Position numbers and translations under genes: made by a program. DNA of 45,936 nt from Cyclobacteriaceae bacterium (lineage in GTDB: Bacteria; Bacteroidota; Bacteroidia; Cytophagales; Cyclobacteriaceae): assembly GCA_029881895.1 (NCBI GenBank), contig JAOULS010000002.1, forward strand, positions 1 through 45,936, read 5' to 3'. A model generated the notes under the pieces. That model did not search any database. It was not told the DNA's origin and worked only from the letters and a program-made list of their open reading frames with translations. Position 1 is the stretch's first letter; every line of letters starts with the position of its first letter. Below, one piece after another: positions 29,516-44,451 of this stretch.

Positions 29516-30685
29516 TTAAACCTTTTTCCTCATCAAAAAATAGATATACGAAACGAGTGTAAATAAAACACCCATCACTACAGAAAGCAGCACTGCTCCA
29601 GCAAGGTATTGTACTAAATTGGATTTAACGGCTTCAATGGTTAATCCATCCTTAAAAAGGATGTCATTAGAAGGATTAGAAACAAAAAAATAACCTATTC
29701 GATAGCTACTATAAATGATTACAGGAATCATTGGAGGGATACTAATATTCGCTGCTAAAATAAATAATGCTTTATTAAGCTTGAAAAAATGAGCTAACGG
29801 TATTCCTATCAATAACTGATATCCCCAAACAGGAAAAATTCCCATAAAAACTCCAAACCCTATCGACATTGCTTTTACGTGTACTGGCTGAGTTTGATCA
29901 AAAAAATGCTTTTTTATAAATACTTTTATATTTTCCTTATTCAACAATTTAACAAATCGAAAAGGAATGTAGTACGCTAACGCCAAAATCACCAAATAAG
30001 TATTCAATATGCTTATTCTTGTAAAATCTTGAAATGGTCGAAAGTGAGAAATTCGTTTTTCTTCCGGATCGTAATGTACTTTTACAGGGATATTTTTCAC
30101 TGCTATTCCTTGCCAAGCAGCTTTGACAATTACCTCTACCTCAAATTCAAACCGATTGGTAAGATAGCTTGTATATTCCATTTTCTTTATAGGGTACAAA
30201 CGATAGCCCGACTGAGTATCTTCTAGTTTTATCCCTGTTTCGAATTGAAACCAAAAATTTGAAAACTTATTGCCAAAACTACTTTTACTAGGTACATTCT
30301 CTTGATTCATATTACGAGAACCAATCACCAATGTATGTGGGTTTTGTTCAATCTCACTAAGAAAAAATGGTAAATCTGATGAGTAATGTTGCCCATCACT
30401 ATCAATCGTAATCGCATACTCATAACCTTTCTGGAGGGCATATTTAAAAGCACTTCTTAATGATTTACCCTTTCCTTTATTAAAAGTATGTGTGATTATA
30501 TCTACTCTTTCTTGATAATCCAAAAGGATTTGAGAAGTAGTATCACTAGCTCCATCATTTACAATGATGATATTTTTTGTGTATAACAAAACATCATTTA
30601 CTACCTCTTTTAATGTTTTATCATTATTATATGTAGGGATTATAACACAGCAATGATACTTATCAAATTCTTCTTGAAGTTGCAT
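29516..30685 (-). CDS. Family 2 glycosyltransferase fused to DUF2062 membrane domain
   Basis: This 389-residue protein has residues 8-230 as a DPM1/PglK-like GT-A domain: CVIIPTYNNDKTLKEVV, IIVNDGASDTT, HTFNKGKGKSLRSAFKYA and the metal-binding ITIDSDGQHY. The C-terminal part (about 250-389) is DUF2062, with three or four hydrophobic segments (SIGFGVFMGIFPVWGYQLLIG, ALFILAANISIPPMIPVIIY, YLAGAVLLSVVMGVLFTLV). It probably transfers a sugar to a lipid or lipid-linked head group at the cytoplasmic face. It is the most distal gene of the pigment core, 3 bases after a hotdog dehydratase gene. Aryl-polyene loci often hold a glycosyl/acyltransferase protein, which fits lipid attachment of the pigment (inference). 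Confidence 0.9.
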   Translation of the reverse strand: MQLQEEFDKYHCCVIIPTYNNDKTLKEVVNDVLLYTKNIIIVNDGASDTTSQILLDYQERVDIITHTFNKGKGKSLRSAFKYALQKGYEYAITIDSDGQHYSSDLPFFLSEIEQNPHTLVIGSRNMNQENVPSKSSFGNKFSNFWFQFETGIKLEDTQSGYRLYPIKKMEYTSYLTNRFEFEVEVIVKAAWQGIAVKNIPVKVHYDPEEKRISHFRPFQDFTRISILNTYLVILALAYYIPFRFVKLLNKENIKVFIKKHFFDQTQPVHVKAMSIGFGVFMGIFPVWGYQLLIGIPLAHFFKLNKALFILAANISIPPMIPVIIYSSYRIGYFFVSNPSNDILFKDGLTIEAVKSNLVQYLAGAVLLSVVMGVLFTLVSYIYFLMRKKV

Positions 30686-30688
30686 ACG

Positions 30689-31051
30689 CTATACTAAAAC
30701 TCCCTTCACTTTGAATGTAATCGTGTCATCTTCTAGGCTAGCAGAAGCATTTATTTTCAACTCAGCTCGTTCTTCACTATAATCCACTTTAAAAAACAAT
30801 TTACTCGTTTTTGTAGGGTCTACCAAACTAAGGAATTTGATATTATGAGCTTCTCTAAGTTTATAGGTTTTCCCTTTAACATCAGAGATAATTTCTTTCA
30901 ATATTTCAATTGTACAAACCCCTGGTAAAACAGGCTGATCTGGAAAATGACCTTTAAATATATCATGTGCTGAATCAATTTCAATTTCAGCCACTATTTT
31001 ATCTTCCTCATGACTAAGAGAAGATACTGTATACAAATCGTTTTTTAGCAT
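30689..31051 (-). CDS. FabZ/ApeI-like hotdog 3-hydroxyacyl-ACP dehydratase
   Basis: This 120-residue single hotdog domain has the FabA/FabZ motif GHFPDQPVLPGVCTIEIL, with the catalytic-type His at about residue 37. A FabZ normally has its acidic partner in an E-x-x-A-Q helix after the motif; here the helix reads TIEILKEI, so Glu is present but the AQ is not. In aryl-polyene systems ApeI is the dehydratase that keeps GHFP and pairs with ApeP, which lacks it; the gene at 37686-38120 lacks GHFP and could be the partner. It removes water from the 3-hydroxyacyl-ACP to make the conjugated polyene. One base separates it from the exported protein upstream. Confidence 0.82.
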   Translation of the reverse strand: MLKNDLYTVSSLSHEEDKIVAEIEIDSAHDIFKGHFPDQPVLPGVCTIEILKEIISDVKGKTYKLREAHNIKFLSLVDPTKTSKLFFKVDYSEERAELKINASASLEDDTITFKVKGVLV

Positions 31052-31052
31052 T

Positions 31053-31661
31053 CTATTGTTCTAAAAGTTCTAATTGTAGTTTAACCTTGATTGCATTATG
31101 AGTCAAATTTAAGGATTTTGGTGTATTTTTCTCATAGTTATCAAACACAATCTTTGTTTTTGTTAAATTAAACCCTCCTCGATTTTCGATATATACAATA
31201 TTACTGTCATCAACCTCCAATAATAATTTTCGTGTTGACCACACTTTATACTTCATAACATCATTTTTCGTGGTTTTCTTTTTAATTCTTTCGGCACTTT
31301 CAACGTCTGACAACATCAGCATTGCAAAATCTCTTTCCATTATTTTTCGAACAGATTTCTTATCCAAATATTGTATCATCTTTTTCCAAACAAATACTCC
31401 ATCAATAATTTTAAACTCCATGAGTTTCAGTCCCATTTTAGACAAAAACACACCATGATAATTTGATTTAGATTGTCTTTTAAGCACTAGCAATCCACTG
31501 CCATAATATTTTTTATAGCTCATGGACATGTCATATATTACATTGGTATCATTAAACGACAAATAAGGTATTGGTAATTGTTCAACTTCTTGAGAAAATG
31601 AATGAAGTTGAATACTGATAAAAGCAATACTGAGAATTTTACTTTTTAGAAAAAATTTCAT
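31053..31661 (-). CDS. Exported protein of the pigment locus, possibly LolB-like
   Basis: This 202-residue protein has a signal peptide (about 1-23, ending SFSQ) without a lipobox cysteine. The strand-rich body (YGSGLLVLKRQSKSNYHGVFLSK, LKLMEFKIIDG, KLLLEVDDSNIVYIENRGGF, KTKIVFDNY) resembles the half-open barrel of LolA/LolB-type carriers. Aryl-polyene loci commonly pair a LolA-like protein with a LolB-like/DUF3261 protein, and here it overlaps the LolA-like gene by 23 bases. I infer a lipid-carrier role from position and strand pattern; the sequence alone does not name it. Confidence 0.7.
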   Translation of the reverse strand: MKFFLKSKILSIAFISIQLHSFSQEVEQLPIPYLSFNDTNVIYDMSMSYKKYYGSGLLVLKRQSKSNYHGVFLSKMGLKLMEFKIIDGVFVWKKMIQYLDKKSVRKIMERDFAMLMLSDVESAERIKKKTTKNDVMKYKVWSTRKLLLEVDDSNIVYIENRGGFNLTKTKIVFDNYEKNTPKSLNLTHNAIKVKLQLELLEQ

Positions 31662-32271
31662 CGGAAATTGCCTGATTGAATTGTTTATTAAAAAAAGTGA
31701 TTTGCGTATAATCTTCTTCTGGCTCTACTAATTTTAGGCGTGAAACCGAATAATCTTGTTTATCAAAATAAATCTCTATTTCAGACAAAAAAGCTCCTAA
31801 CTGTTTTTTATCAATGGGGGTCAAAACAGCTGCAAAATATTCCTTATTCTCTAAATAAGTAATGTTAAATTTAGTGGCATCGAGTACATTTCCTTGTACA
31901 CTATTTATTATCAGTTGATTCATTTCGGAAAAAAGTTTACTCGACCCTACAGAAAACTCATTTACCTTGCCTCCATCATCGATGATTATTCCATTACCAT
32001 TTAAGACTATGTCATACAAATAGGGCGTTGTATAACTCCACTTAACCATATTGGGCTGTTTAAATTTGATAGTGCCATTTGAGATTAGCTGCTGCGACAA
32101 AATACTCATGAATTTTTCTTGCTTAAATTCAGCAATGATACTATTCGTAATAGCCGTTTTTTCAGTAAGATTTTTTTTAAATGCCTCTACCTCTTTCATA
32201 ACTCTAAAGTCATTTTGAGCAAAAGAAATAAAAGTGATTATAAAGCATATAAAAGTAATAGTTGCCCTCAT
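31639..32271 (-). CDS. LolA-like outer-membrane lipoprotein carrier
   Basis: This 210-residue periplasmic protein has a signal peptide (1-18, FICFIITFISFAQ). Characteristic LolA-like strands are ITNSIIAEFKQEKFMSILSQQLISNGTIKF (residues about 41-70), PNMVKWSYTTPYLYDIVLNGNGIIID, and AVLTPIDKKQLGAFLSEIEIYFDKQDYSVSRLKLVEPEEDYTQITF. LolA carries lipid-modified cargo across the periplasm; the aryl-polyene member (ApeL) is thought to carry the lipid-linked pigment. It starts 11 bases after the deacetylase gene and overlaps the next gene, so it is part of the same operon and probably pigment-specific rather than the general LolA. Confidence 0.85.
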   Translation of the reverse strand: MRATITFICFIITFISFAQNDFRVMKEVEAFKKNLTEKTAITNSIIAEFKQEKFMSILSQQLISNGTIKFKQPNMVKWSYTTPYLYDIVLNGNGIIIDDGGKVNEFSVGSSKLFSEMNQLIINSVQGNVLDATKFNITYLENKEYFAAVLTPIDKKQLGAFLSEIEIYFDKQDYSVSRLKLVEPEEDYTQITFFNKQFNQAISDEIFSKK

Positions 32272-32282
32272 TTATATATAAA

Positions 32283-33041
32283 TTAAATTTTCAATAAATC
32301 TTCTACCTTCACACTCTTTAAATTTTGTTTTTTCATGAACTGCAAAATTCCCTCCAAAATCTGTACCACATCATCTCTATCATCATGAAGTAAGATGATT
32401 GCGCCACCTTTCATTTTTTTCATGACTCTTTGCACTACTTTTTCAGCACGATCTCCTATCGTATCATAAGAACGAACATTCCAACCAATAGTTTTCATTT
32501 TGGTTTTTTTTACCGCTCTTGCTATGCGTGGGTTGGTTATACCAAAAGGAGGACGAAATAAGCGCTTACCATTATTATTTTCAATAAGTATATTGGTCTT
32601 TTCTATTTCATCAATCATTTTATTTACAGAAAGAATAGGGAAATTGTGCTGATGTGCATATGAATGATTTCCGACACTATGTCCCTTATTAATAATTTCA
32701 TTCACTAATACCTGATTATACTTCACTTTTTTTCCAATGCAGAAAAACGTAGCCTTTGCATCGAATTCATCTAGTAATTTCAATACCTTAGGAGTCAAAG
32801 TTTCGTGAGGACCATCGTCAAAAGTAAGTGATATTTCATTACTATTGGGATTTCCGTTATTACTCGACTCTAAAAAAAAATTCCACTGAATAAAGTAAGA
32901 TCCCGTTGCCACAAATAGTAAAAAGAATAGCACGACTATACCATACCAATAATTTGAAAATGAAACTCCATACATGTCCAAGCCTAGCATTATTACTAAC
33001 AGTATAGCAAAAAACAACTTTACATGTATGTATTTTAACAT
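32283..33041 (-). CDS. Polysaccharide deacetylase (NodB homology domain), membrane anchored
   Basis: This 252-residue protein starts with two hydrophobic segments (about 7-24 and 33-50), followed by a NodB domain. The five family motifs are visible: SLTFDDGPHE (Asp75, Asp76), HSVGNHSYAH (metal-binding His126 and His130), FRPPFGITNPR, GWNVRSYDTIGD and IILLHDD. It deacetylates an N- or O-acetylated sugar, using a divalent metal. In this operon a plausible substrate is the sugar or lipid head group added by the GT2 protein, but that is inference; general peptidoglycan or glycan deacetylation is an alternative. Its start overlaps the upstream ketosynthase-like gene by 7 bases. Confidence 0.9.
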   Translation of the reverse strand: MLKYIHVKLFFAILLVIMLGLDMYGVSFSNYWYGIVVLFFLLFVATGSYFIQWNFFLESSNNGNPNSNEISLTFDDGPHETLTPKVLKLLDEFDAKATFFCIGKKVKYNQVLVNEIINKGHSVGNHSYAHQHNFPILSVNKMIDEIEKTNILIENNNGKRLFRPPFGITNPRIARAVKKTKMKTIGWNVRSYDTIGDRAEKVVQRVMKKMKGGAIILLHDDRDDVVQILEGILQFMKKQNLKSVKVEDLLKI

Positions 33042-34075: not shown

Positions 34076-34076
34076 G

Positions 34077-35270: not shown

Positions 35271-35525
35271 CTAAGCCTTGTTTTCTTGAATAAATTCAGC
35301 GATGCTTCTAACACTATTAAATACTTTTTTTCCAACTTCAGGATTATCAATTTTCACTTCATAGTTCTTTTCCAAAAGAACAATTAGCTCCAATGCATCA
35401 ATAGAATCTAAACCAATTTTTTCTCCGAAAAGCAATTCATCATCTGCAATATCATCAACTGTGAAATCTTCCAAATTGAGTTGTTCAATTATATCTTCCT
35501 TGAGTTGTTGTATTAATTTGTCCAT
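35271..35525 (-). CDS. Acyl carrier protein
   Basis: This 84-residue acidic four-helix protein has phosphopantetheine attachment at Ser41 in GLDSIDALEL. The residues around it are those of the type II ACP family. It carries the growing polyene chain or its starter. It lies 8 bases after the 200-residue ketosynthase-like gene and touches the next KS gene. A second ACP is encoded at 39020-39277; aryl-polyene loci commonly carry two (ApeE, ApeF). Confidence 0.95.
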   Translation of the reverse strand: MDKLIQQLKEDIIEQLNLEDFTVDDIADDELLFGEKIGLDSIDALELIVLLEKNYEVKIDNPEVGKKVFNSVRSIAEFIQENKA

Positions 35526-35533
35526 TATCTTTA

Positions 35534-36136
35534 TTATATTAAGTTTTTTATTTTATCGTTAAATATACTTATTGTATCCTTATTCTCATTTGAAATTAAA
35601 AACAAATGCGCTTGATAATCCTCCCCATCAAAATCTACCCACCCTGTAATACAATACGTGTACTTTTCTTTGTCAAATAAATAGGAAACATATTGATTTA
35701 AAAAGGAAGTGTCAAAATCCTTCATCTGAAAGCAGGAATTTTCACCAGTAATTTTATACTTGATACACATCTCACCAATCATGATATTGGGCAATGTGTA
35801 AACAAAAACAGCAGGGCTTGGTAATTCATCCATACTAGTTTGATGAATAGTATCTGAAACAATGGATGAACTACTGTTTCCTAAAATTATTGCTACTTCA
35901 CTAGAAGGAGTGTCAACTAATACTTGGCCATTATCAAGTAAAAATTCAGAAGTAAGAAGAGCGAGTTTACACAAATTATCCATTTTATGATATTTGCTAT
36001 ACCCGATTTCAAATTGTTTATATACTTTTAGTGCAAAATCATTAAAAGAAAGGTTTTGATTCAAAATAATAGGTTTTCCATTTTTAAAAATACCTTTTGA
36101 ATTAAAAGTGCAATATGATTGAATTCCTAAATTCAT
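35534..36136 (-). CDS. Truncated ketosynthase-like protein (N-terminal thiolase-fold half)
   Basis: This 200-residue protein has ketosynthase-like strands EVAIILGNSSSSIVSDTIHQ and PSPAVFVYTLPNIMIGEMCIKYKITGENSCF, which match the region just before the KS active-site Cys. Beyond that the GENSCF segment and the tail (QYVSYLFDKEKYTYCITGWVDFDG) replace the usual domain, and there is no His loop. So it is about half a KS, lacking any visible catalytic triad. Similar short proteins occur in flexirubin-type clusters, as far as I recall, often mislabelled 3-oxoacyl-ACP synthase. It could pair with an active KS or act as a scaffold. Its start overlaps the preceding KS stop in an ATGA junction. The product is intact in frame, so it is unlikely to be a recent pseudogene. 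Confidence 0.75.
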   Translation of the reverse strand: MNLGIQSYCTFNSKGIFKNGKPIILNQNLSFNDFALKVYKQFEIGYSKYHKMDNLCKLALLTSEFLLDNGQVLVDTPSSEVAIILGNSSSSIVSDTIHQTSMDELPSPAVFVYTLPNIMIGEMCIKYKITGENSCFQMKDFDTSFLNQYVSYLFDKEKYTYCITGWVDFDGEDYQAHLFLISNENKDTISIFNDKIKNLI

Positions 36137-37245
36137 GCTTTCTTAAAAATTATTGCAGCGTTACATCCTCCAAATCCCGACACCGTTTTAAGCGCAATAT
36201 CAATATTTTTCTTTTTCGTCTTTTCTATTACACTTATTTTTCTCGAAACCCCTAATTGATTGAACCCTTCTGATTTCATTAGTTGGTTTGCGTTCAATTG
36301 TCGGATTGTTAAAATGGATTCAATAATACCCGCAGCACCTAATGTATGGCCAAAATATCCTTTTAAACTATTTACTGGCGCCTTTCCTAAGCCTAGATCA
36401 TCAAAAGCAATGGACTCCATTTCGTCATTATACAAAGTTGCAGTACCATGTGCATTGATATAATCAATTTGATTTGCATGTATGCCTGATGCTTTAAATG
36501 ATTTAGTTACTGCCAAATTAAGCCCTGCTCCTGTTCTTGATGGGCCAGAAATGTGATTTGCATCGTTTGATTGCCCTCCTCCAATGATCTCACTATATGC
36601 CATTTTATCTCCTTTCAACTTTTCATCGTTGCTAATCACTATTGTGCCGACCCCTTCTCCGAGAGAAATTCCGTCCCGTCTGATATCATAGGGTTTACAA
36701 GGCGATTCGCTTACCGCTTTAAGTGAATTGAAACCAGATAAAGTGAACTTGGAAAGGATGTCACCTCCACTTACAATTGCATGATCATATGCTCCCATTT
36801 CGATTAGGTTACGAGCTACCAATATAGCCGAAACGCCTGAAATACATGCATTAGAGACTACTATTGGAGAATGCTTCAAATGAAAGTATTCATTTATCGC
36901 TTCAGCCATTTCCGCCAACTTTATTCTTTTACCTTTTTCCTTATCATTGAGTTGTTCTATATTTCCTTTTGTAGAGGATAGCACCAAAATGGTGCGGTTT
37001 AAATCAACATCGACCGAAGACAATGCTTGTTCGATAGAGTTGATCAATAAATTTTCTAAAAATGTATACTCATCAATAGATGGAAGGTCGTAATTAATTT
37101 TAGCACCATAAAAAAAATCATTTGACAATTCAGGGTTATTAATTTTAGTTATACCTGATTGTCCATTACCGATAGCAAGCACATTCGCCTCTGTAGTTGA
37201 TCCTAAAGGGCTTATAATATTATCAGAAATGGTGAAAATTTTCAT
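36133..37245 (-). CDS. Beta-ketoacyl-ACP synthase, active-site intact
   Basis: This 370-residue condensing enzyme has Cys134 in VSNACISGVSA, the first His in NAHGTATLYNDEMES, the second in KGYFGHTLGAAGIIES, and the end VSGFGGCNAAIIF. It is shorter than most FabF proteins (about 410), mainly at the N-terminus. The residues around the Cys (NACISG) differ from FabF (TACAAS/TACSSS), which suggests a distinct starter or chain. The gene lies 18 bases after the thioesterase gene and overlaps the truncated KS-like gene by 4 bases. In aryl-polyene nomenclature it is closest in layout to the ApeO/ApeR group, but which one cannot be settled by eye. Confidence 0.93.
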   Translation of the reverse strand: MKIFTISDNIISPLGSTTEANVLAIGNGQSGITKINNPELSNDFFYGAKINYDLPSIDEYTFLENLLINSIEQALSSVDVDLNRTILVLSSTKGNIEQLNDKEKGKRIKLAEMAEAINEYFHLKHSPIVVSNACISGVSAILVARNLIEMGAYDHAIVSGGDILSKFTLSGFNSLKAVSESPCKPYDIRRDGISLGEGVGTIVISNDEKLKGDKMAYSEIIGGGQSNDANHISGPSRTGAGLNLAVTKSFKASGIHANQIDYINAHGTATLYNDEMESIAFDDLGLGKAPVNSLKGYFGHTLGAAGIIESILTIRQLNANQLMKSEGFNQLGVSRKISVIEKTKKKNIDIALKTVSGFGGCNAAIIFKKA

Positions 37246-37263
37246 TTATTATCTTAATTGAAC

Positions 37264-37689
37264 TTATTGGTATACTCCATTTTTTTGTTTCCATTCAATG
37301 TAAAAATCTGGATTAGTAAGGTGAAGTTCTTTATTAGCATCCAAAAACACTTGTTCCGTTCTACCAATCGCTAATTTTTCTCCTGATGTTTTATCAATAA
37401 GAGTATACTCAAAAACAATTTTTGCCGCTTGAACAGGAATAAATACTACCTCAACGATGATATTTTTTTCATATTCAATAGGTCGTTTATAATCACAATG
37501 AATAGAAGTAATAGGCATAAGAAATCCTTTTCGATAAACCTCCATGTACCCTAATCCATATTGTTTTCCAAATTCTTCCCTGCCATCTTCAAAATATTTG
37601 ACATGATTTCCATGCCATACGATCCCAAGGCTATCTACTTCACTAAAGCGAATGGTGATTTCTCTAGTAGCTATTAATTGGTTATTCAT
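37264..37689 (-). CDS. Hotdog acyl-CoA/ACP thioesterase (4HBT/YbgC type)
   Basis: This 141-residue hotdog protein begins REITIRFSEVDSLGIVWHGNHVKYFEDGREEF, the 4HBT signature (Asp near residue 18, then the HGNxxxYFE segment). Family members hydrolyse acyl-CoA or acyl-ACP thioesters. In aryl-polyene loci a thioesterase of this type (ApeK-like) is standard and may release or edit the chain; its real substrate is not visible from sequence. It overlaps the dehydratase gene by 4 bases (ATGA). Confidence 0.88.
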   Translation of the reverse strand: MNNQLIATREITIRFSEVDSLGIVWHGNHVKYFEDGREEFGKQYGLGYMEVYRKGFLMPITSIHCDYKRPIEYEKNIIVEVVFIPVQAAKIVFEYTLIDKTSGEKLAIGRTEQVFLDANKELHLTNPDFYIEWKQKNGVYQ

Positions 37690-38120
37690 TTGTTAATAAA
37701 TATTCGTAACTCACAAGAAGCTAAAATTTCCTCTTTACTATTTTTCACCTCTCCTTTAACAATCTGAATATTCATCATCTCGTTTGTTAATGTAGTAGTA
37801 GTGAAAATATCACTACCTGTAGAAGGGTTTTGAAATATTTTTACATCCTTAATTCCAGCTATATATCCTAAAGGTATTTCTTTCCCAGCATCTTTAAATT
37901 TAGTTCCTGCAAATAATGCAGCCGTTTGGGCTATGTTTTCGATCAATCCTCCATCTTTAAACTCTCCATTTTCCACCATCACGTTATTCTCTTCAATGGT
38001 AAGCCCCGTCACTACATGATTTTCACCTTTTTCATATACAGCATCTACCATTACAAATGGAGGTCGTTGAGGGATATAATCCAAAACATCATCTCCTTGT
38101 ATAATTTTATTCATCATCAT
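37686..38120 (-). CDS. ApeP-like hotdog 3-hydroxyacyl-ACP dehydratase subunit
   Basis: This 144-residue hotdog domain has VLDYIPQRPPFVMVDAVYE at residues 12-30 and GGLIENIAQTAALFAGTKF at about 57-75. The helix keeps the E-N-I-A-Q acid motif but no GHFP histidine precedes it (the segment reads VENGEFKDGGLIEN). ApeP proteins of aryl-polyene systems have the same feature and work as a heterodimer with ApeI. The GHFP-bearing protein at 30689-31051 would be the complementary half, with Glu from this one and His from the other (inference). It starts 6 bases after the acyltransferase gene. Confidence 0.85.
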   Translation of the reverse strand: MMMNKIIQGDDVLDYIPQRPPFVMVDAVYEKGENHVVTGLTIEENNVMVENGEFKDGGLIENIAQTAALFAGTKFKDAGKEIPLGYIAGIKDVKIFQNPSTGSDIFTTTTLTNEMMNIQIVKGEVKNSKEEILASCELRIFINK

Positions 38121-38126
38121 TCTATT

Positions 38127-39020
38127 TTATTCAATTACAGCACCTTCTGCTTCATCATTCCAAAAATCAAAATAGTTAAACCATTGATTTGGAAATTGAT
38201 TAATTTTTTCTTCAAGCGATTTTACATAATCATCTAGAATATCCAAAGGAGAATCTTCTGGATATTTTATCGCTGTGGAAGAAAGTTTATAATGTTTAGC
38301 ATTTGGTTTTTCTTTCAAACAATATACAAAAGTATATGGAACGTTTAATTTATGTGCAATGGAAAATACACCCGTAGGAAAATACGCTTCTTTATTCATG
38401 AACGATTTTTTGCTCACCCTACTGCCCTTCACAAAACGATCGCCATGCATACAGATAATTTCGTTGTTTTTTAACGCTTTTTTAATAAGTATAATATGTG
38501 ACATATCTCCTTTAATCGGTATTATTGTCACTGTATTGTTTTGAACAATAGTTTCGAGGTAATTTTTTATCTTTTCATGCTCAGCTTCAAACATCACAAT
38601 ATTGATTTTTATATTAATCCGTTTCAATAAAAATCCTGCAATATCCCAATTTCCTAAATGAGCACTAATAAGCATACCACCTTTACCTCCTTCTCGTAAT
38701 TGATGTAAATGTTCTTCGCCATCAAAATCATAACTAAAATCAGATACTGCACCTGACATAATTGCAATTTTGTCAATTAACGTTTGTCCAAAAATAAAAT
38801 AATTAGAAAATACTGCTTTTAAGGAATTATAGGTAGAATAGCGTAGAATATCTTTATAATACCTATAAATCGCTTTTGAGGCTTTGGGTACAAAAAAAAC
38901 AAAGTAGGTTGATACTATACGTAAAAGAAAATAGGCAGCTTTAAGCCCCAGTTGGTTTAAGACAAATACAAAAATTTTATAGCCTAATAAACCTCCTCTG
39001 GTTTTGCCTTTCCATGACAT
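38127..39020 (-). CDS. LpxL/HtrB-like lysophospholipid acyltransferase
   Basis: This 297-residue membrane-associated acyltransferase has the HxxxxD catalytic motif in ISAHLGNWDIAGF (near residue 119), followed by NIVMFEAEHEKIKNYLE and IICMHGDRFVKGSR, which match the LpxL/LpxM family. In E. coli the family adds secondary acyl chains to lipid A. In aryl-polyene clusters the homologue (ApeD) is thought to place the polyene or a fatty acid on the lipid anchor. Its first codon overlaps the ACP stop by one base (TAATG junction), so both are translated together. Confidence 0.9.
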   Translation of the reverse strand: MSWKGKTRGGLLGYKIFVFVLNQLGLKAAYFLLRIVSTYFVFFVPKASKAIYRYYKDILRYSTYNSLKAVFSNYFIFGQTLIDKIAIMSGAVSDFSYDFDGEEHLHQLREGGKGGMLISAHLGNWDIAGFLLKRINIKINIVMFEAEHEKIKNYLETIVQNNTVTIIPIKGDMSHIILIKKALKNNEIICMHGDRFVKGSRVSKKSFMNKEAYFPTGVFSIAHKLNVPYTFVYCLKEKPNAKHYKLSSTAIKYPEDSPLDILDDYVKSLEEKINQFPNQWFNYFDFWNDEAEGAVIE

Positions 39021-39277
39021 TACTTGCTTTCTACTTTATTTATGATATAGTCGTAAAAATTTTGAAACGTAATGATTCCAGTAAAATCTTCTGGTTTTAC
39101 TTTAAAGCCAAAATTGCTTTCAATTTCAACCACCAAATCCACATAATCAAGACTATCTAAATCTAGTGTGTTTTTTAAGTCTGCATCTGGAGTTATTGCA
39201 TCAGCATCTACCTCAAATTCTTCTACTAAAAACTCATTTACCTTCTCAATAATCTCTTCCTTACTCATTACTTGCAT
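39020..39277 (-). CDS. Acyl carrier protein (second)
   Basis: This 85-residue protein has the attachment serine at 42 (Ser39 if translation begins at the fourth codon, MSKEEII) in LDLDSLDYVDLVVEIE. Both ATGs are plausible, since the second gives a more usual ACP N-terminus. The DSLDYVDL motif differs from the first ACP (DSIDALEL), so the two may serve different partners, for example one for the coumaroyl starter and one for chain extension. It lies 10 bases after the KS gene and overlaps the acyltransferase gene by one base. Confidence 0.95.
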   Translation of the reverse strand: MQVMSKEEIIEKVNEFLVEEFEVDADAITPDADLKNTLDLDSLDYVDLVVEIESNFGFKVKPEDFTGIITFQNFYDYIINKVESK

Positions 39278-39287
39278 AATTATTAAA

Positions 39288-40508
39288 TCAAAATTTTCTT
39301 ATTATAATCGATGAATTGGTTCCTCCAAATCCAAAAGAATTGGAAAGAAATGTATCAAATTCAGTTTCTACTGTTTCGTAGGCAAAGTTAATATCTTTAA
39401 TCTCATCATCAGGGGTATTCAAATTTATATTTGGAGCAATAAAACCATTTTTCATCATAAGTAATGAATAAACGATTTCACTCGATCCTGCCATCCACAT
39501 TTCGTGTCCTGTCATTGATTTCGTTGACGACAAATAAGGTCTTGAATTACCAAATATGCGTTGTATTGCTTTTGCTTCATTTAAATCACCTATTGGCGTT
39601 GAGGTAGCATGCGCATTAATATAATGAATATCTTTTGGTGTAAGTTGAGCTTGATTTAACACCATTTCCAATGATTTTGCAGGTCCTTCAATATTAGGTC
39701 TCGAAATATGTTCTCCATTAGATGAAAATCCATACCCCAATATTTCGCCAAAAATAGTAGCTCCTCTTTTTTGAGCAGATTCTAAACTTTCAATAATAAC
39801 AGTCGCTGCACCACCACTAGGAACAAGTCCATCTCTATCTTTATCAAAAGGTCTAGAGGCTTTTTCTGGAGCATCGGTACGCATAGAAAACGTACTCAGT
39901 CCATCAAAACTCCCCATAGATTGATAGTTTACTTCCTGCGCTCCTCCACAAATTACTTTATTTTGAAGTCCTTGTTTTACCAATAAATAACCTAGCCCTA
40001 TGGAATGCGAACCACTAGCGCAAGCAGCACTTACAGTAAAGTTAATCCCTCTCAATTTAAAAATTGTGGAGAGGTTCATCGTTACTGTAGAGTTCATTGA
40101 TTGAAAAATAGAACCACTACCTGTCAAGGTAGTGTCTTTTTTCAAGCGAATAGTGTCAGACGCTTCAATTACAGACTTTGCAGAGCTATCATTCCCAAAA
40201 ATAATCCCCACATCCTCTTTCAATAACATATCTTCATCAATACCCGCCTCTTTCAACGCCTCTAACGTTGATAAGTAGGCATACTCACCCTGATCTGGCA
40301 ATCCTACACGGTCTCTACGTTTTAAATATTCCTTCAAATTAGGTTTAGGGATTACACCTGTTAATGGTGATCTAAACCCAATCACTTCCCTTTCTGGATC
40401 TATTCCTATGCCTGATTTACCTGTATATAGCGAATTTCTAACTTCTTCTAGGTTTACACCTAACGTAGAATAAATACCGATTCCTGTAATAACTACTCTA
40501 TTATTCAT
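39288..40508 (-). CDS. Beta-ketoacyl-ACP synthase (ApeR/FabF-like), active-site intact
   Basis: This 406-residue condensing enzyme has Cys163 in SAACASGSHSIG, the first His in NAHATSTPIGDLNEAKA, the second in KSMTGHEMWMAGSSE, and the end SNSFGFGGTNSSIII. The HATSTPIGD loop is FabF/FabB-like. The E-M-W-M segment after the second His is unusual compared with the FabF consensus GHxLGAAG and may shape the substrate channel; similar residues occur in FabB (GHSLGAAG there), so the difference is notable. It follows the ketoreductase gene by 7 bases and precedes the second ACP gene by 10. Confidence 0.95.
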   Translation of the reverse strand: MNNRVVITGIGIYSTLGVNLEEVRNSLYTGKSGIGIDPEREVIGFRSPLTGVIPKPNLKEYLKRRDRVGLPDQGEYAYLSTLEALKEAGIDEDMLLKEDVGIIFGNDSSAKSVIEASDTIRLKKDTTLTGSGSIFQSMNSTVTMNLSTIFKLRGINFTVSAACASGSHSIGLGYLLVKQGLQNKVICGGAQEVNYQSMGSFDGLSTFSMRTDAPEKASRPFDKDRDGLVPSGGAATVIIESLESAQKRGATIFGEILGYGFSSNGEHISRPNIEGPAKSLEMVLNQAQLTPKDIHYINAHATSTPIGDLNEAKAIQRIFGNSRPYLSSTKSMTGHEMWMAGSSEIVYSLLMMKNGFIAPNINLNTPDDEIKDINFAYETVETEFDTFLSNSFGFGGTNSSIIIRKF

Positions 40509-40515
40509 ATACTAT

Positions 40516-41241
40516 TTAAAGCAAGCCTCCATTTATTGAAATCACCTCTCCTGTAATATAACTTGAGTGAGGAGAGGCTAAAAAACCGACCAAATGAGCC
40601 ACCTCTTCAGCCGTACCAAATCTTTTCAGCGGTATTAACCCCTTAAATTGTTTTTCATCTATATCTTCGGTCATATCTGTACTAATAAACCCTGGCGCAA
40701 CAGCATTTACTGTTATTTTTCTTCTACCAACTTCTTGCGCCAATGCTTTAGTAGCTCCAATTACAGCTGCCTTTGCTGCTGAATAATTAGTTTGGCCGGG
40801 CATTCCTTTTAATCCAGATAACGAAACAATATTGATTATTCTTCCACCTTTCTCCTTAATCATTTCACCAATCACCGCCTTTGTTACATTATAAAATCCT
40901 CCTAAACTAATATTTATAACATCGTCCCATTGTTCATCCTCCATCCACAACAATAAATTATCCTTCCGGATACCTGCATTATTTACTAATACTTCTATTT
41001 GGTCGTCAGGATTTTTTAAGAACCAATTTGACAAAGTCGATTTGGTTTGATCTCTGTCAGAAACATCGAATTTTATTGATTCAGCTTTCACACCTTTCTC
41101 TTCAATCAATTTTTTCACCTCTGCGGCAGCCACTTCATTAGAATTATAATTCAATAGGATATTAAATCCCATGTCTGCTAATTGTAAAGCAACTGCTTTA
41201 CCAATCCCTCGTGATCCTCCTGTAACTAATGCGTACTTCAT
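40516..41241 (-). CDS. fabG: 3-oxoacyl-ACP reductase (FabG/ApeQ-like)
   Basis: This 241-residue short-chain dehydrogenase reduces beta-ketoacyl-ACP with NADPH. The cofactor motif is TGGSRGIGKAVA (residues 7-18), NNAG at 87-90, and the catalytic Ser140-Tyr153-Lys157 set lies in NIVSLSG and NYSAAKA. The end ISTDMTEDI and TGEVISINGGLL are FabG-like. It is the second gene of the cluster, 89 bases after TAL, with a possible promoter of its own at 41270. In an aryl-polyene pathway it would reduce each beta-keto intermediate (ApeQ role). It could also be shared with fatty-acid synthesis; the context favours the pigment. Confidence 0.95.
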   Translation of the reverse strand: MKYALVTGGSRGIGKAVALQLADMGFNILLNYNSNEVAAAEVKKLIEEKGVKAESIKFDVSDRDQTKSTLSNWFLKNPDDQIEVLVNNAGIRKDNLLLWMEDEQWDDVINISLGGFYNVTKAVIGEMIKEKGGRIINIVSLSGLKGMPGQTNYSAAKAAVIGATKALAQEVGRRKITVNAVAPGFISTDMTEDIDEKQFKGLIPLKRFGTAEEVAHLVGFLASPHSSYITGEVISINGGLL

Positions 41242-41269
41242 GTAAAGGTTATTATAAAAAAAACGATTG

Positions 41270-41277
41270 CAAAATTA
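41270..41277 (-). promoter_or_regulatory. Possible internal -7 box ahead of fabG
   Basis: On the minus strand this reads TAATTTTG, 28 bases before the fabG ATG, in the largest gap inside the cluster. A CAA (TTG on the minus strand) lies at 41293-41295, 15 bases away, slightly closer than the usual 17-23. Confidence 0.42.
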
Positions 41278-41330
41278 ATTCAAAATGTACTTCAATCATA
41301 AAAAATTACCATAATAATTACAAACACCTA

Positions 41331-42869
41331 CTATATTTCTAAAGGGGAATTATTAAGCATGTATTCTTTAACTTTCTGTAAATCATTATATATTGGATAG
41401 TCATCTACAAATTTCGGAACTAACTTCCTGATTTTATTAAATGTATCTGTTGATTTTGGTGATAAACCATCTGTTTTACCTATCAAATCCAATGATTGTA
41501 CAATACTAATCATCTCAATCACCAAAACTTCAAAGGTATTGTCTATTACTTTTTTAGTACAAGTTGCAGCATTTGTACCCATACTTACAATATCCTGATT
41601 ATCATTATTATTTGGGATACTATGCACATACATGGGATTTGAAAGCATCTGGTTTTCTGCGGTAGTAGAGGTTGCCGTAAACTGAACACCTTGCATCCCA
41701 AAATTAAATCCTAATTTTCCTAAATTGGCAAATGGGGTGAGTAACCCATTTAATTGAGGGTTCATCAAGAAATTTAGCTGCCGCTCGGCTAACATCGATA
41801 ATTTAGTAATCGCAATTTTCAACTTATCCATTTCGAATGAAACATAATCACCATGAAAATTACCTCCATGCAACACGTTCTCTGCTTTTACATCAACTAT
41901 CGGATTATCATTTGCCGAATTAATCTCTTCAATCAGTACCTTTTGACTTTGATTTACTGTTTCTAATATAGTGCCTACAATTTGCGGCACACATCGCAAC
42001 GAATAATACTCTTGTACCTTATCTTCAAAATATTTTTCTTCTACTTCTCCATTATAAAGGCGCTGTTCTCTTTTTCGTATATAACTACTTTGTGTTATAT
42101 GCTCATACAACACTCTGGCCACTTCCTGTTGCCCTATATGTTTTTTTGATTGATTTAATTCTTTAGAGAAATAATCATCATACGAATCTACCATTTCGCA
42201 TATCATGATGGTACAAGTCAATGACCATTCGATGGCTCTCTTTGCATATATTGCATTAATAATGCCTATCCCCGTCATTACACTAGTCCCATTCATCACT
42301 GCCAACCCTTCTCTCAACTTCACTTTCATGGGCTTGATACCTAATTTATCAAACACCACGGACGTTTTTTGCACTTTATCCTCATACACCACCTCCCCTT
42401 CTCCTATCATTACCAATGCCAAATGTGCCAATTGCACCAAATCGCCACTTGCTCCAACACCACCATGCTCAAAAATAAGGGGAGTAATATTATTGTTTAT
42501 GAGTTCCTCTAATACCTCAATAGCTGTTATATTAACACCAGAATACCCTAAAGACAAGGTATTTAATCGAGCAATCATAGCTGCTTTCGCATATTCAGGA
42601 GACAGAGGCTGCCCAAATCCAGACGAGTGACTACGAATTAAATTATATTGTAATTTAATTTGGTCTGACTCGTCAATCTTGTATTGAGCCATAGGACCAA
42701 AGCCAGTATTAATGCCATATATGATTTTGTTCTTTGAGAATTCATTAAGAAAATGATAGCTTTCATTTACTTTTTGTTCTACATCATCTGATATTCTAAT
42801 CTTATCATCTTTAAAGATTAGTTTATTAATCTCTTCTAGATTTAAAGATGCATGTCTTATTTCTATCAT
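41331..42869 (-). CDS. Tyrosine ammonia-lyase (aromatic amino-acid lyase, MIO enzyme)
   Basis: The frame continues to an ATG at 42926, but the start at 42869 (MIEIRHASLNLEEINKLIF) fits the family better and leaves a hairpin outside the gene. The product is 512 residues. The MIO cofactor forms from Ala140-Ser141-Gly142 in GVGASGDLVQLAHLALVMIGEG. Segments YGINTGFGPMAQYKI, LQYNLIRSHSSGFGQPLSP, SANDNPIVDV, GGNFHGDYVSFEMDK and SIPNNNDNQDIVSMGTNAA track Flavobacterium johnsoniae TAL almost residue for residue, which supports tyrosine over histidine. It makes 4-coumarate and ammonia; in flexirubin/aryl-polyene pathways that is the aromatic starter unit. It is the first gene of the pigment operon. 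HAL activity remains an alternative. Confidence 0.9.
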   Translation of the reverse strand: MIEIRHASLNLEEINKLIFKDDKIRISDDVEQKVNESYHFLNEFSKNKIIYGINTGFGPMAQYKIDESDQIKLQYNLIRSHSSGFGQPLSPEYAKAAMIARLNTLSLGYSGVNITAIEVLEELINNNITPLIFEHGGVGASGDLVQLAHLALVMIGEGEVVYEDKVQKTSVVFDKLGIKPMKVKLREGLAVMNGTSVMTGIGIINAIYAKRAIEWSLTCTIMICEMVDSYDDYFSKELNQSKKHIGQQEVARVLYEHITQSSYIRKREQRLYNGEVEEKYFEDKVQEYYSLRCVPQIVGTILETVNQSQKVLIEEINSANDNPIVDVKAENVLHGGNFHGDYVSFEMDKLKIAITKLSMLAERQLNFLMNPQLNGLLTPFANLGKLGFNFGMQGVQFTATSTTAENQMLSNPMYVHSIPNNNDNQDIVSMGTNAATCTKKVIDNTFEVLVIEMISIVQSLDLIGKTDGLSPKSTDTFNKIRKLVPKFVDDYPIYNDLQKVKEYMLNNSPLEI

Positions 42870-43224
42870 ATTTTTCAACCAACTATTATAAAATTGTTTG
42901 TAAAAAACAAACAACAGTACTCGCAAAAAAAAAGATATTGAAACTATAAAGCAACATATTAGTTATTTAAATTCATTCTAATTGTTTTCGTTGACCAAAG
43001 TTTGATTATTTTTACTAATGAAAACCTGAATTCGATTAATTATTGTATTCCAAAATGTAGTTTCGTGTACATTGTGGGATTATTATTAGGTTCTGAGATA
43101 ATTTTTAAGTTTAATTTTTCTTAACCCTAATACTCGTAGTACACCGTTAAAATTAGTGGTTTTTACAGAACCGATTTCAGATAAATCAGTTACTCTATCA
43201 CATAATAAAGCAAAAAACTGTTCA
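42870..43224. other. Divergent control region between TAL operon and halogenase gene
   Basis: This 355-base gap holds no ORF I trust. Besides the inverted repeat at 42894-42914 I see only AT-rich sequence; no perfect TAnnTTTG box faces either gene. It must hold both promoters if each gene is expressed separately. Confidence 0.6.
42894..42914. promoter_or_regulatory. 7-bp inverted repeat 25 bases upstream of TAL
   Basis: TTGTTTG (42894-42900) and CAAACAA (42908-42914) flank a 7-base A-rich spacer. It lies in the leader/promoter region of the TAL start at 42869, so it could be an operator or an RNA hairpin. It is inside the coding region only if the upstream ATG (42926) is used. Confidence 0.4.
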
Positions 43225-44451
43225 ATGAATAATAGAAACGAAGAAATTGATGTGTTAATAATTGGAGCAGGTCCTTCTGGCACTGTGGCCGCAGGTGTGC
43301 TAAACAAGAATGGTGTTTCAACAAAAATTATTGAAAAGCAATCGTTTCCAAGATTTGTAATTGGAGAAAGTTTATTACCCCGGTGTATGGACAATTTAGA
43401 AAAAGCAGGTCTGTTGGAAGTGGTTAAACATCAAAATTTTCAAGAAAAATTTGGAGCTAAATTTATTGATAAAAGTAAAAATTGTGATTTTGATTTTTCA
43501 GAGCAATTTTCAGAAGGTTGGGGTTGGACATGGCAAGTAAAAAGAGCCCAATTCGACCAAGTACTCGCCCAAGAAATTGAAAAAAGAGGGGTGCCTATCG
43601 CCTACAATACTGAAGTAACAGATGTTCACTTTGACCAAAATGGCACCTCTACCACTACTATTAATCGTGAAGATGGTAGTTCAGATACAATTACAGCCAA
43701 GCATATTATTGACGCAAGTGGTTATGGTCGTGTTTTACCTCGCCTTCTACAACTTGATGTACCTTCTAATTTCCCTGTTCGAACTTCTTTATTTTGCCAT
43801 ATAAAAGATTTAAACCGACCTACAGGTGCTGACGGAAATAGAATCACAATAGTGGTGTATAAACAAGATGTATGGATATGGATTATCCCCTTCTCTGACA
43901 ACATTACCTCTGTGGGTGTAGTGGGCAGTCCTGAAGACATAAACCGCTTTAAGGGAGGTGCTACAGATCAATTTAAAAGTTGGATTTCAGAAGTTCCAGA
44001 ACTTGCTGATAGATTTAATAAAATGGATTACATTTTTGAACCCAAGCAAATCACAGGGTATTCATCTGCTGTATCTAAGTTATATGGTGATGGATATACA
44101 TTAACTGGAAACTCAACAGAATTTCTAGACCCTGTTTTCTCATCTGGAGTTACTTTTGCAACAGAATCAGGTGCATTGGCAGCAGAACTGATTACACGAA
44201 CATTAAAAGGAGAAAATGTAGATTGGGAAACAGAATATTCTGAGTACATAAAAAGAGGTGTTGACGTGTTTCGAAGTTTTATAATGGGTTGGTATGATGG
44301 TACACTTCAAAAAATATTTTTTACTAAAAAGGAGAATGAATTAATGAAAAAACAAATCTGCTCAGTACTAGCTGGGTATGTTTGGGACCTAGAAAATCCA
44401 TTCGTAAAACAACACGCTAGAGCGCTAAAAGCACTAGCAGATGTGCTGTAA
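43225..44451 (+). CDS. Flavin-dependent halogenase-like oxidoreductase
   Basis: The frame opens at 43156, but residues before the ATG at 43225 are unlike the family. From 43225 the protein starts MNNRNEEIDVLIIGAGPSG, with the FAD motif at 14-19, and has 408 residues. Halogenase marks are FPRFVIGESLLPRCMDNLE (near residue 40), GWGWTWQVKRAQFDQVL near 100, and the WxWxIP motif at 217-222 (WIWIIP). The FxxFxIGESLLP segment is that of the group that acts on phenolic, often carrier-bound substrates (PltA/CndH-like). It could chlorinate or brominate the coumaroyl ring, consistent with chlorinated flexirubins of Bacteroidota; hydroxylation by an FAD monooxygenase relative is the main alternative. Placement beside TAL, divergent, supports a pathway role. 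Confidence 0.85.
   Translation: MNNRNEEIDVLIIGAGPSGTVAAGVLNKNGVSTKIIEKQSFPRFVIGESLLPRCMDNLEKAGLLEVVKHQNFQEKFGAKFIDKSKNCDFDFSEQFSEGWGWTWQVKRAQFDQVLAQEIEKRGVPIAYNTEVTDVHFDQNGTSTTTINREDGSSDTITAKHIIDASGYGRVLPRLLQLDVPSNFPVRTSLFCHIKDLNRPTGADGNRITIVVYKQDVWIWIIPFSDNITSVGVVGSPEDINRFKGGATDQFKSWISEVPELADRFNKMDYIFEPKQITGYSSAVSKLYGDGYTLTGNSTEFLDPVFSSGVTFATESGALAAELITRTLKGENVDWETEYSEYIKRGVDVFRSFIMGWYDGTLQKIFFTKKENELMKKQICSVLAGYVWDLENPFVKQHARALKALADVL

What the first reader, a model, noticed from the sequence alone, without database searches (positions are those of the whole stretch)
29516..44451. Aryl-polyene / flexirubin-type pigment cluster with tyrosine starter and putative halogenase
Seen: a gene chain of TAL, FabG, three active KS, two KS-like proteins, two ACPs, two hotdog dehydratases, thioesterase, LpxL-like acyltransferase, LolA-like and LolB-like exported proteins, NodB deacetylase and GT2-DUF2062, plus a divergent WxWxIP halogenase. 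Known: flexirubin and aryl-polyene loci share this set, with a tyrosine-derived aryl starter; chlorinated flexirubins are known in Bacteroidota. Inferred: a coumaroyl-primed, possibly halogenated polyene anchored to an envelope lipid, perhaps sugar-modified (GT2, deacetylase), which would be a less common variant.
Basis: partly seen in the sequence, partly recalled or inferred. Interest (0 to 1): 0.78.

Follow-up and report, generated by a model that had tools for sequence, protein, structure and literature searches.

The report
Flexirubin pigment genes with halogenase
These genes make flexirubin, the well-known yellow-orange pigment of Bacteroidota bacteria; the neighbouring halogenase-like gene, which looked unusual, turns out to accompany most such pigment clusters in the genomes sampled, although what it does has not been tested.

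Summary
Window 29516-42926 (minus strand) is a 17-gene flx operon, from tyrosine ammonia-lyase to GT2-DUF2062, with a divergent FAD halogenase-like gene at 43225-44448. Of 10 window proteins scanned with NCBIfam, three are flexirubin FlxA, LolA2 and LolB2 above cut-off. Pathway parts absent from the window lie on two other contigs of the genome: the exporter-to-FlxY block on C2, and a dialkylresorcinol locus with DarB, DarG and DarH above cut-off on C195. The product is therefore most likely a flexirubin (aryl-polyene acid esterified to a dialkylresorcinol), not a polyene on an envelope lipid. GT2 and the deacetylase are standard flx parts. The halogenase is not a rare extra: in 395 Bacteroidota genomes it occurs in 30, all among the 33 with FlxA; nearer relatives, 12 of 18. 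All 80 named relatives kept keep WxWxIP and the lysine column. Halogenase activity is unproven: the closest solved relative, 3NIX, is named only a flavoprotein/dehydrogenase, and the C. pinensis flexirubin examined in print carries methyl but no chlorine. Verdict: new member of a known kind; whether this enzyme is the flexirubin chlorinase is open.

The parts
41331..42926 (-). FlxA, tyrosine ammonia-lyase (likely start near 42869)
   Evidence: NF053541 844 bits > cut-off 700; PF00221 E=1.2e-154; MIO motif ASG at residue 159
40516..41241 (-). FlxB-like 3-ketoacyl-ACP reductase (FabG)
   Evidence: PF13561 E=3.2e-59
39288..40508 (-). FlxC-like ketosynthase, active-site motifs present (CASG, HATST, GHEMWMAG)
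   Evidence: PF00109 and PF02801; first two motifs, third seen in the sequence
39020..39277 (-). acyl carrier protein 1 (DSL)
   Evidence: PF00550
38127..39020 (-). LpxL-like acyltransferase (HLGNWD)
   Evidence: PF03279 E=1.3e-14
37686..38120 (-). FlxF-like hotdog dehydratase; FabZ-like, PQRPPF where FabZ has a His (FabZ motif recalled)
   Evidence: NCBIfam FabZ E=3.9e-9, below cut-off; no Pfam hit; motif
37264..37689 (-). 4HBT-type thioesterase
   Evidence: PF13279 E=2.5e-16
36133..37245 (-). FlxI-like ketosynthase, active-site motifs present (CISG, HGTAT, GHTLGAAG)
   Evidence: PF02801 E=1.5e-21; PRK09185 E=5.4e-68, below cut-off
35534..36136 (-). FlxL-like half-ketosynthase, likely chain-length-factor partner without KS Cys motif
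   Evidence: PF00109 only E=0.029; AF2 pLDDT 85.6; Foldseek hits KS/CLF including ApeC 6qsp_B, E=2.9e-5
35271..35525 (-). acyl carrier protein 2 (DSI)
   Evidence: PF00550
34077..35270 (-). FlxN-like ketosynthase, active-site motifs present (CSS, HGTGT, GHTLGAAG)
   Evidence: PF00109 and PF02801
33035..34075 (-). FlxO-like KS homologue lacking the active-site Cys motif
   Evidence: PF13723 E=1.1e-14; H.T.T motif absent; no KS Cys motif in the sequence
32283..33041 (-). FlxP-like polysaccharide-deacetylase-family protein (TFDDGP)
   Evidence: PF01522 E=4.6e-30
31639..32271 (-). LolA2 (FlxR-like) periplasmic carrier
   Evidence: NF053544 210 bits > cut-off 125
31053..31661 (-). LolB2 exported protein
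   Evidence: NF053540 72.5 bits > cut-off 60
30689..31051 (-). FlxS-like FabA/ApeI-type hotdog dehydratase (GHFP)
   Evidence: PF07977 E=5.3e-8; ApeI-like E=1.7e-5, below its cut-off
29516..30685 (-). FlxT-like GT2-DUF2062 protein
   Evidence: PF00535 E=8.9e-25, PF09835 E=1.7e-14
43225..44448 (+). CmlS/PltA-like FAD halogenase homologue (3NIX family), divergent from TAL; matches position K of the flxA-flxY order (inferred)
   Evidence: PF04820 E=2.4e-22; PDB 3nix_A 508 bits, then halogenases 5bul, 5bva, 3e1t, 3i3l, 7fco, 8zop, 5dbj, 5buk, 8gu0; WIWIIP; Lys75 column

Best explanation
The window holds the main operon of a flexirubin pathway that is split over three loci of one genome. FlxA deaminates tyrosine to 4-coumarate. 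FlxY (contig C2) activates it. The KS/CLF, ACP, KR and dehydratase set extends it to an aryl-polyene acid. The DAR locus (C195) makes a dialkylresorcinol, and the C45/FlxW-like or DarH acyltransferase forms the ester. LolA2, LolB2 and the MMPL exporter carry the pigment to the outer membrane. The divergent flavoprotein most likely chlorinates the phenol ring ortho to its hydroxyl, on a free or carrier-bound precursor. Shown here: gene content, order, curated family membership, co-occurrence, co-divergence and conserved catalytic-site residues. Shown elsewhere, for Chitinophaga pinensis: the FlxA and FlxY activities. Inferred: the product of this organism, every transport step, and halogenation. 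The confidence given is for the flexirubin assignment; for ring halogenation by the divergent gene I put about 0.55.
For: FlxA, LolA2 and LolB2 above cut-off. FlxY above cut-off on C2, next to the MMPL-acyltransferase-methyltransferase fusion, CrtI-like, C45 and AcpS proteins. DarB, DarG and DarH above cut-off on C195. The same separation is seen in the same-genus genome G001 as far as its contigs reach. Cluster gene content largely conserved in 17 other FlxA genomes. Halogenase homologue (E <= 1e-90) in 12 of 146 relatives, all 12 among the 18 FlxA genomes (hypergeometric 1.5e-13), and (E <= 1e-110) in 30 of 395 phylum genomes, all among the 33 FlxA genomes (5.7e-42; 13 of the 16 FlxA genera). 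In 25 of those 30 it is divergent within 3 kb of TAL. TAL-halogenase distance correlation r=0.93 over 53 loci, against 0.89 and 0.90 for TAL-LpxL and TAL-FabG. WxWxIP and Lys75 in 80 of 80 named homologues. The Lys75 column is Lys in CmlS, ChlB4, PltA and 5buk. Chlorinated flexirubins are known (PMC3992019 introduction).
Against: 3NIX, the closest solved homologue, is labelled only 'Flavoprotein/dehydrogenase'. By gene order C. pinensis should carry this gene at position K (inferred, not seen), yet its flexirubin was C43H54O4, methylated and without chlorine. In 3 of 33 FlxA genomes of the phylum sample, and 6 of 18 among relatives, the homologue is absent at the thresholds used. The NCBIfam CmlS model is hit well below its cut-off (171 against 900). 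The own FlxJ-family methyltransferases score below the FlxJ cut-off, as in all 19 genomes searched, and DarA is recognised by position and by homology among loci only. The genome is a draft in 312 contigs (90.2% complete, 4.4% contaminated), so the three contigs are joined by bin only. The co-occurrence p-values ignore shared ancestry.
Confidence: 0.9

Rival explanations
1. The cluster makes a simple aryl polyene without dialkylresorcinol, esterified to an envelope lipid as in E. coli APE.
For: The window itself has no darA/darB; its proteins resemble ApeI- and ApeC-type parts; an LpxL-like acyltransferase is present.
Against: DarB, DarG and DarH above cut-off on contig C195, and a homologous locus in G001; the FlxA, LolA2 and LolB2 models are named as flexirubin models.
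Confidence: 0.06
2. The divergent flavoprotein is not a halogenase but another FAD oxidoreductase of flexirubin maturation or redox protection (for example a dehydrogenase or hydroxylase).
For: C. pinensis flexirubin lacks chlorine although its flx letter order leaves position K for this gene (inferred); presence in 30 of 33 FlxA genomes of the phylum sample would suit an obligate step; 3NIX was named a dehydrogenase.
Against: WxWxIP and Lys75 kept in 80 of 80; after 3NIX, the next nine PDB matches are chains named as halogenases or as CmlS, ChlB4, PltA or RadH; it is missing from 6 of 18 and 3 of 33 FlxA genomes, so it is not obligate; the part of the published scheme that I read names no oxidation step for it (PMC3992019; Figure 3 and the supplement not seen).
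Confidence: 0.3
3. The halogenase acts on the dialkylresorcinol ring rather than on the coumaroyl/polyene ring.
For: Resorcinols are good flavin-halogenase substrates (RadH-type, recalled); another halogenase-like gene sits between the DarA-like and DarB-like genes in G037, one of four DAR loci looked at.
Against: In this window and in 25 of 30 phylum genomes (this one included) the gene is divergent from TAL; it was not in the own DAR locus; the 2014 paper describes known chlorination at the polyene ring.
Confidence: 0.12

Closest known systems
Flexirubin cluster flxA-flxY plus darAB of Chitinophaga pinensis (Schoner et al. 2014, PMC3992019) and Flavobacterium johnsoniae UW101
   Same: Same kinds of enzymes in the same relative order for those whose letter roles the main text names (TAL A, reductase B, KS C/I/L/N/O, dehydratases F/S, deacetylase P, LolA R, GT and exporter up to U, ligase Y); DAR genes in a separate locus, as in C. 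pinensis.
   Different: Here flxU-flxY lie on a separate contig from flxA-flxT; no separate phospholipid/glycerol acyltransferase follows the deacetylase (the exporter on C2 is fused to an acyltransferase domain); a c6 homologue (position G) was not seen in the window or in the stretch of C2 read; the halogenase-like gene is divergent upstream of TAL; the FlxJ-family methyltransferase sits in the DAR locus and scores below the FlxJ cut-off (469 against 560).
Aryl polyene (APE) clusters of E. coli/Xenorhabdus, xanthomonadin clusters, and the Azoarcus arcuflavin cluster
   Same: Type II FAS-like polyene machinery, a KS/CLF pair (fold match to ApeC), hotdog dehydratases, LpxL-like acyltransferase, LolA, exporter (APE gene list recalled); xanthomonadin clusters (PMC3691225, passages) and the Azoarcus polyene-dialkylresorcinol hybrid cluster (arcA, PMC3949708, passages) also list a halogenase.
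   Different: Tyrosine/coumarate starter by TAL; APE, xanthomonadin and arcuflavin use hydroxybenzoate starters (passages, in part recalled); xanthomonadins lack the dialkylresorcinol, as does E. coli APE (recalled).
Flavin-dependent halogenases CmlS, PltA, ChlB4 and CndH (3e1t; the name CndH is recalled); structural homologue 3NIX
   Same: Alignment over most of the length, GxGxxG, WxWxIP, Lys at column 75.
   Different: I found no member of this Bacteroidota subfamily with tested halogenase activity in my listings.

Membership tests
Flexirubin biosynthetic cluster | Flexirubin-type tyrosine ammonia-lyase (FlxA) | tested here: met
   NF053541 844 bits > 700. Control: of 14 well-known genomes the model passes its cut-off in 1; at E <= 1e-150 only Bacteroides ihuae rings
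Flexirubin biosynthetic cluster | 4-coumarate ligase FlxY in the genome | tested here: met
   NF053551 645 bits > 520 at G000:C2:12111-13376; above cut-off in 18 of 19 genomes searched, and in 1 of 14 control genomes
Flexirubin biosynthetic cluster | Type II KS/ACP/KR/DH polyene machinery | tested here: met
Flexirubin biosynthetic cluster | Dialkylresorcinol synthesis genes (DarA/DarB) | tested here: met
   DarB NF053539 594.7 > 550, DarG 184 > 170, DarH 443 > 300 on G000:C195. DarA itself is only inferred: the 306-aa neighbour hit no NCBIfam or Pfam model
Flexirubin biosynthetic cluster | LolA2/LolB2 pair | tested here: met
   both above cut-off; reported always within flexirubin-like pigment loci (PMC11885536, passages)
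Flexirubin biosynthetic cluster | Ring methyltransferase FlxJ | tested here: inconclusive
   two FlxJ-family proteins in the genome (469 and 461 bits), both under the cut-off of 560, which none of the 19 genomes reached
Flexirubin biosynthetic cluster | Yellow pigment turning orange-red with KOH; polyene-DAR ester by MS | not testable with these tools
   needs cells
Flavin-dependent halogenase | GxGxxG, WxWxIP and catalytic Lys (motif roles recalled) | tested here: met
Flavin-dependent halogenase | Score above a curated halogenase model | tested here: inconclusive
   Pfam Trp_halogenase 79.9 > 21; NCBIfam CmlS 171 < 900
Flavin-dependent halogenase | Chloride-dependent halogenation of a substrate | not testable with these tools
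   no assay; no report seen for this subfamily
APE cluster with lipid anchor | Absence of a dialkylresorcinol partner | tested here: not met
   DAR locus present on C195

The most novel reading that the evidence does not exclude
The 3NIX-type flavoprotein is the so far unassigned flexirubin chlorinase (position flxK): a near-core component of flexirubin clusters across Bacteroidota that moved between at least three positions yet co-diverges with TAL, so most of the sampled flexirubin producers have the gene to chlorinate their pigment, and reported non-chlorinated flexirubins reflect culture conditions or competition with the FlxJ methyltransferase for the ring ortho positions.
Probability: 0.5. 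Interest if true: 0.5.

Novelty: new member of a known kind. Interest (0 to 1): 0.3.

Why it matters
It places the window in a known, widespread pathway.

Tried and rejected
Envelope-lipid anchoring and sugar decoration: rejected, because DAR genes were found and because GT2 and the deacetylase are standard flx parts. Rare-variant reading: rejected by counts. Idea that this organism makes chlorinated flexirubin INSTEAD of methylated: dropped, since FlxJ-family methyltransferases exist on C195 and C245 (both below the model's cut-off). Single-protein scan of genome contigs for the halogenase found nothing; the alignment scan worked. Promoters of the divergent intergenic region: the sigma-70-type scan gave 7 sites where shuffles give 3.2 (sd 1.8), a mild excess for a consensus not meant for Bacteroidota; a Bacteroidota -7/-33 pattern (recalled) gave 27 matches in the window where shuffles give 35.7, one of them upstream of TAL at 42924-42954; no conclusion drawn. 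Literature on 3NIX as a halogenase: no paper held both terms. Searches that returned no paper. Of the 80 named halogenase loci, 57 had at least three core flx genes within 10 kb (script count); I read 5 more (L072, L080, L110, L133, L136) as carrying TAL beside the halogenase near a contig end, and 18 as unlinked within the fetched stretch, some of them short.
Full report
What is there. The window is a whole 45,936-bp contig (C152) of a 2.85-Mb, 312-contig draft genome, 90.2% complete and 4.4% contaminated. From 42926 down to 29516 on the minus strand run 17 closely packed genes: TAL, FabG, KS, ACP, LpxL-like acyltransferase, FabZ-like hotdog, 4HBT thioesterase, KS, a 200-aa KS-like protein, ACP, KS, a KS homologue without the Cys motif, NodB-type deacetylase, LolA, LolB, FabA-like hotdog and GT2-DUF2062. 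Divergent from TAL is a flavoprotein with WIWIIP; relatives align from its ATG at 43225, so the GTG at 43156 is probably not the start. The three full KS keep the Cys and both His motifs (the second His of KS406 was missed by my pattern and is read from the sequence). The 200-aa protein hit the KS Pfam model only at E=0.029. An AlphaFold2 model built on an alignment of 20 sequences (pLDDT 85.6) matched KS/chain-length-factor structures at modest TM-scores, the best being the ishigamide KS/CLF (E=6.4e-6) and among them ApeC of the Xenorhabdus APE system (6qsp_B, E=2.9e-5).

What it is. Ten of the 18 proteins (17 operon genes plus the flavoprotein) were scanned with NCBIfam; the TAL is flexirubin FlxA (844 bits, cut-off 700) and the Lol proteins are flexirubin LolA2 (210 > 125) and LolB2 (72.5 > 60). 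Among 146 related genomes including its own, 18 carry FlxA above cut-off. The 17 others have the gene set largely in the same order: G063 has it split in two pieces, G001 runs off the contig end after the KS370 homologue, G102 lacks the KS406 and ACP85 homologues, and several give no LolB hit. Many of these relatives also carry an MMPL-acyltransferase-methyltransferase fusion, a CrtI-like protein, a C45 acyltransferase, AcpS and the ligase FlxY close by, which the window lacks. In this genome these lie together on contig C2. DarB (594.7 > 550), DarG (184 > 170) and the BtrH-like acyltransferase DarH (443 > 300), with a DarA-like 306-aa protein, an ABC transporter, an ACP and a FlxJ-family methyltransferase, lie on contig C195. 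The DarA label is by position and homology among loci only. The same-genus genome G001 shows the same separation as far as its contigs reach (C186, C158 and C159), which speaks against bin contamination but does not exclude it. The pathway appears complete for a flexirubin. The product should be an aryl-polyene acid esterified to a dialkylresorcinol, as Schoner et al. describe (PMC3992019: first of five parts of the text, section 7 and passages read).

The named loci with the closest halogenase homologues are Marinigracilibium pacificum and a Cesiribacter (68 and 66% identity), both Cytophagales. I take the host to be an undescribed Cytophagales genus; this is inference, and very near genomes may be left out of that scan.

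The halogenase-like gene. Its best solved match is 3NIX ('Flavoprotein/dehydrogenase', 508 bits); the next nine matches are chains named as halogenases or as CmlS, ChlB4, PltA or RadH. A profile of nine homologues aligns invariant Lys75 with Lys in CmlS, ChlB4, PltA and 5buk, and in 3NIX itself (the five alignments printed); that this is the catalytic lysine, and that WxWxIP marks halogenases, is recalled. In 57 of the 80, at least three core flx genes lie within 10 kb.

Co-occurrence. In the 146 relatives the gene (E <= 1e-90) occurs in 12, all among the 18 FlxA genomes (hypergeometric 1.5e-13). In a phylum sample of 395 genomes FlxA occurs in 33 and the gene (E <= 1e-110) in 30, all 30 among the 33 (5.7e-42). 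Limits: the p-values ignore shared ancestry; the sample is rich in a few genera (16 FlxA genera, 13 with the gene, of 171); this genome is in both samples; only the best 12 or 4 first-look candidates per genome were scored; weaker paralogues below the thresholds are not counted; and the alignment searches carry no control genomes. For the FlxA model, 1 of 14 control genomes passed the cut-off, Bacteroides ihuae. In 25 of the 30 the gene is divergent within 3 kb of TAL, in 2 within 15 kb, in 3 farther away. Among the 17 other FlxA relatives it sits divergent upstream of TAL in 4, co-directional upstream in 1, inside the operon in 3, among the flxU-flxY genes in 1 (G068, 41% identity), unlinked in 2 (G102, G134) and absent at the threshold in 6. 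So it has moved but stays with the pathway. Its divergence follows that of TAL (r=0.932) at least as well as that of two core genes (0.887 and 0.900), over 53 loci: those, of the 80 named, 18 unnamed and the window, that hold all four proteins near full length. Vertical inheritance alone also gives such a correlation.

Which flx gene. In Chitinophagaceae loci such as L130 the order is TAL, FabG, KS, ACP, LpxL, FabZ-like, c6, 4HBT, KS, FlxJ, halogenase, KS-like, ACP, KS, KS, deacetylase. Laid on the published letters, of which A, B, C, F, I, L, N, O, P-U, V, W and Y have roles in the main text, the halogenase falls on K. FlxK is not mentioned in the main text and its supplement was not available, so this is inferred.

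For and against halogenation. For: family, motifs, known chlorinated flexirubins, the halogenase gene listed in the Azoarcus polyene-dialkylresorcinol cluster, and the halogenase of the related xanthomonadin clusters, whose absence in Lysobacter goes with non-brominated pigment (PMC3691225, passages). Against: the C. pinensis flexirubin was C43H54O4 without chlorine although the gene is expected there; 3NIX is named only as a flavoprotein/dehydrogenase; no curated NCBIfam halogenase cut-off is reached in the 25 of 91 hits shown. I put ring chlorination at about 0.55, another oxidation at about 0.3.

Literature limits. The searches 'flexirubin + gene cluster + halogenase', 'flexirubin + chlorinated', 'flexirubin + halogenat', 'flavin-dependent halogenase + 3NIX' and 'aryl polyene + halogenase' gave listings in which I saw no paper assigning a flexirubin halogenase. 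I opened passages of five papers from these listings (PMC3949708, PMC11187115, PMC8253772, PMC12565237, PMC3691225) and, from other listings, passages of PMC11885536 and PMC9606717 and parts of PMC3992019. The library is open-access only.

Verdict. Observation confirmed; interpretation partly right; a new member of a known kind, with one clean open question.

Noticed in passing
It may halogenate the resorcinol ring.
   Followed up: partly
G063 contig C9 (L033, L051): The flx cluster is split and rearranged: the ACP-to-FlxY half lies upstream of TAL instead of after the 200-aa KS-like gene.
   Followed up: partly
Bacteroides ihuae (control genome of the genome search): This control genome rings for the FlxA model at E <= 1e-150 and passes the FlxJ cut-off, so a Bacteroides may carry flexirubin-type genes.
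   Followed up: no
window 10980-15008 (-): 1342-aa TPR-CHAT protein next to an OmpA/PD40 protein (8922-10973) and a 752-aa protein without Pfam match at E <= 1e-5 (6667-8925).
   Followed up: no
G000:C245:2787-3833 (L198:2784-3842): A second FlxJ-family methyltransferase (61% identical to the one in the DAR locus) on a short contig, with no flx gene recognised beside it.
   Followed up: no
window 37686-38120 and 30689-31051: The two hotdog dehydratases look complementary: one has PQRPPF where FabZ has its catalytic His, the other has GHFP but lacks the N-terminal part; they may work as a heterodimer like ApeI:ApeP (recalled).
   Followed up: no
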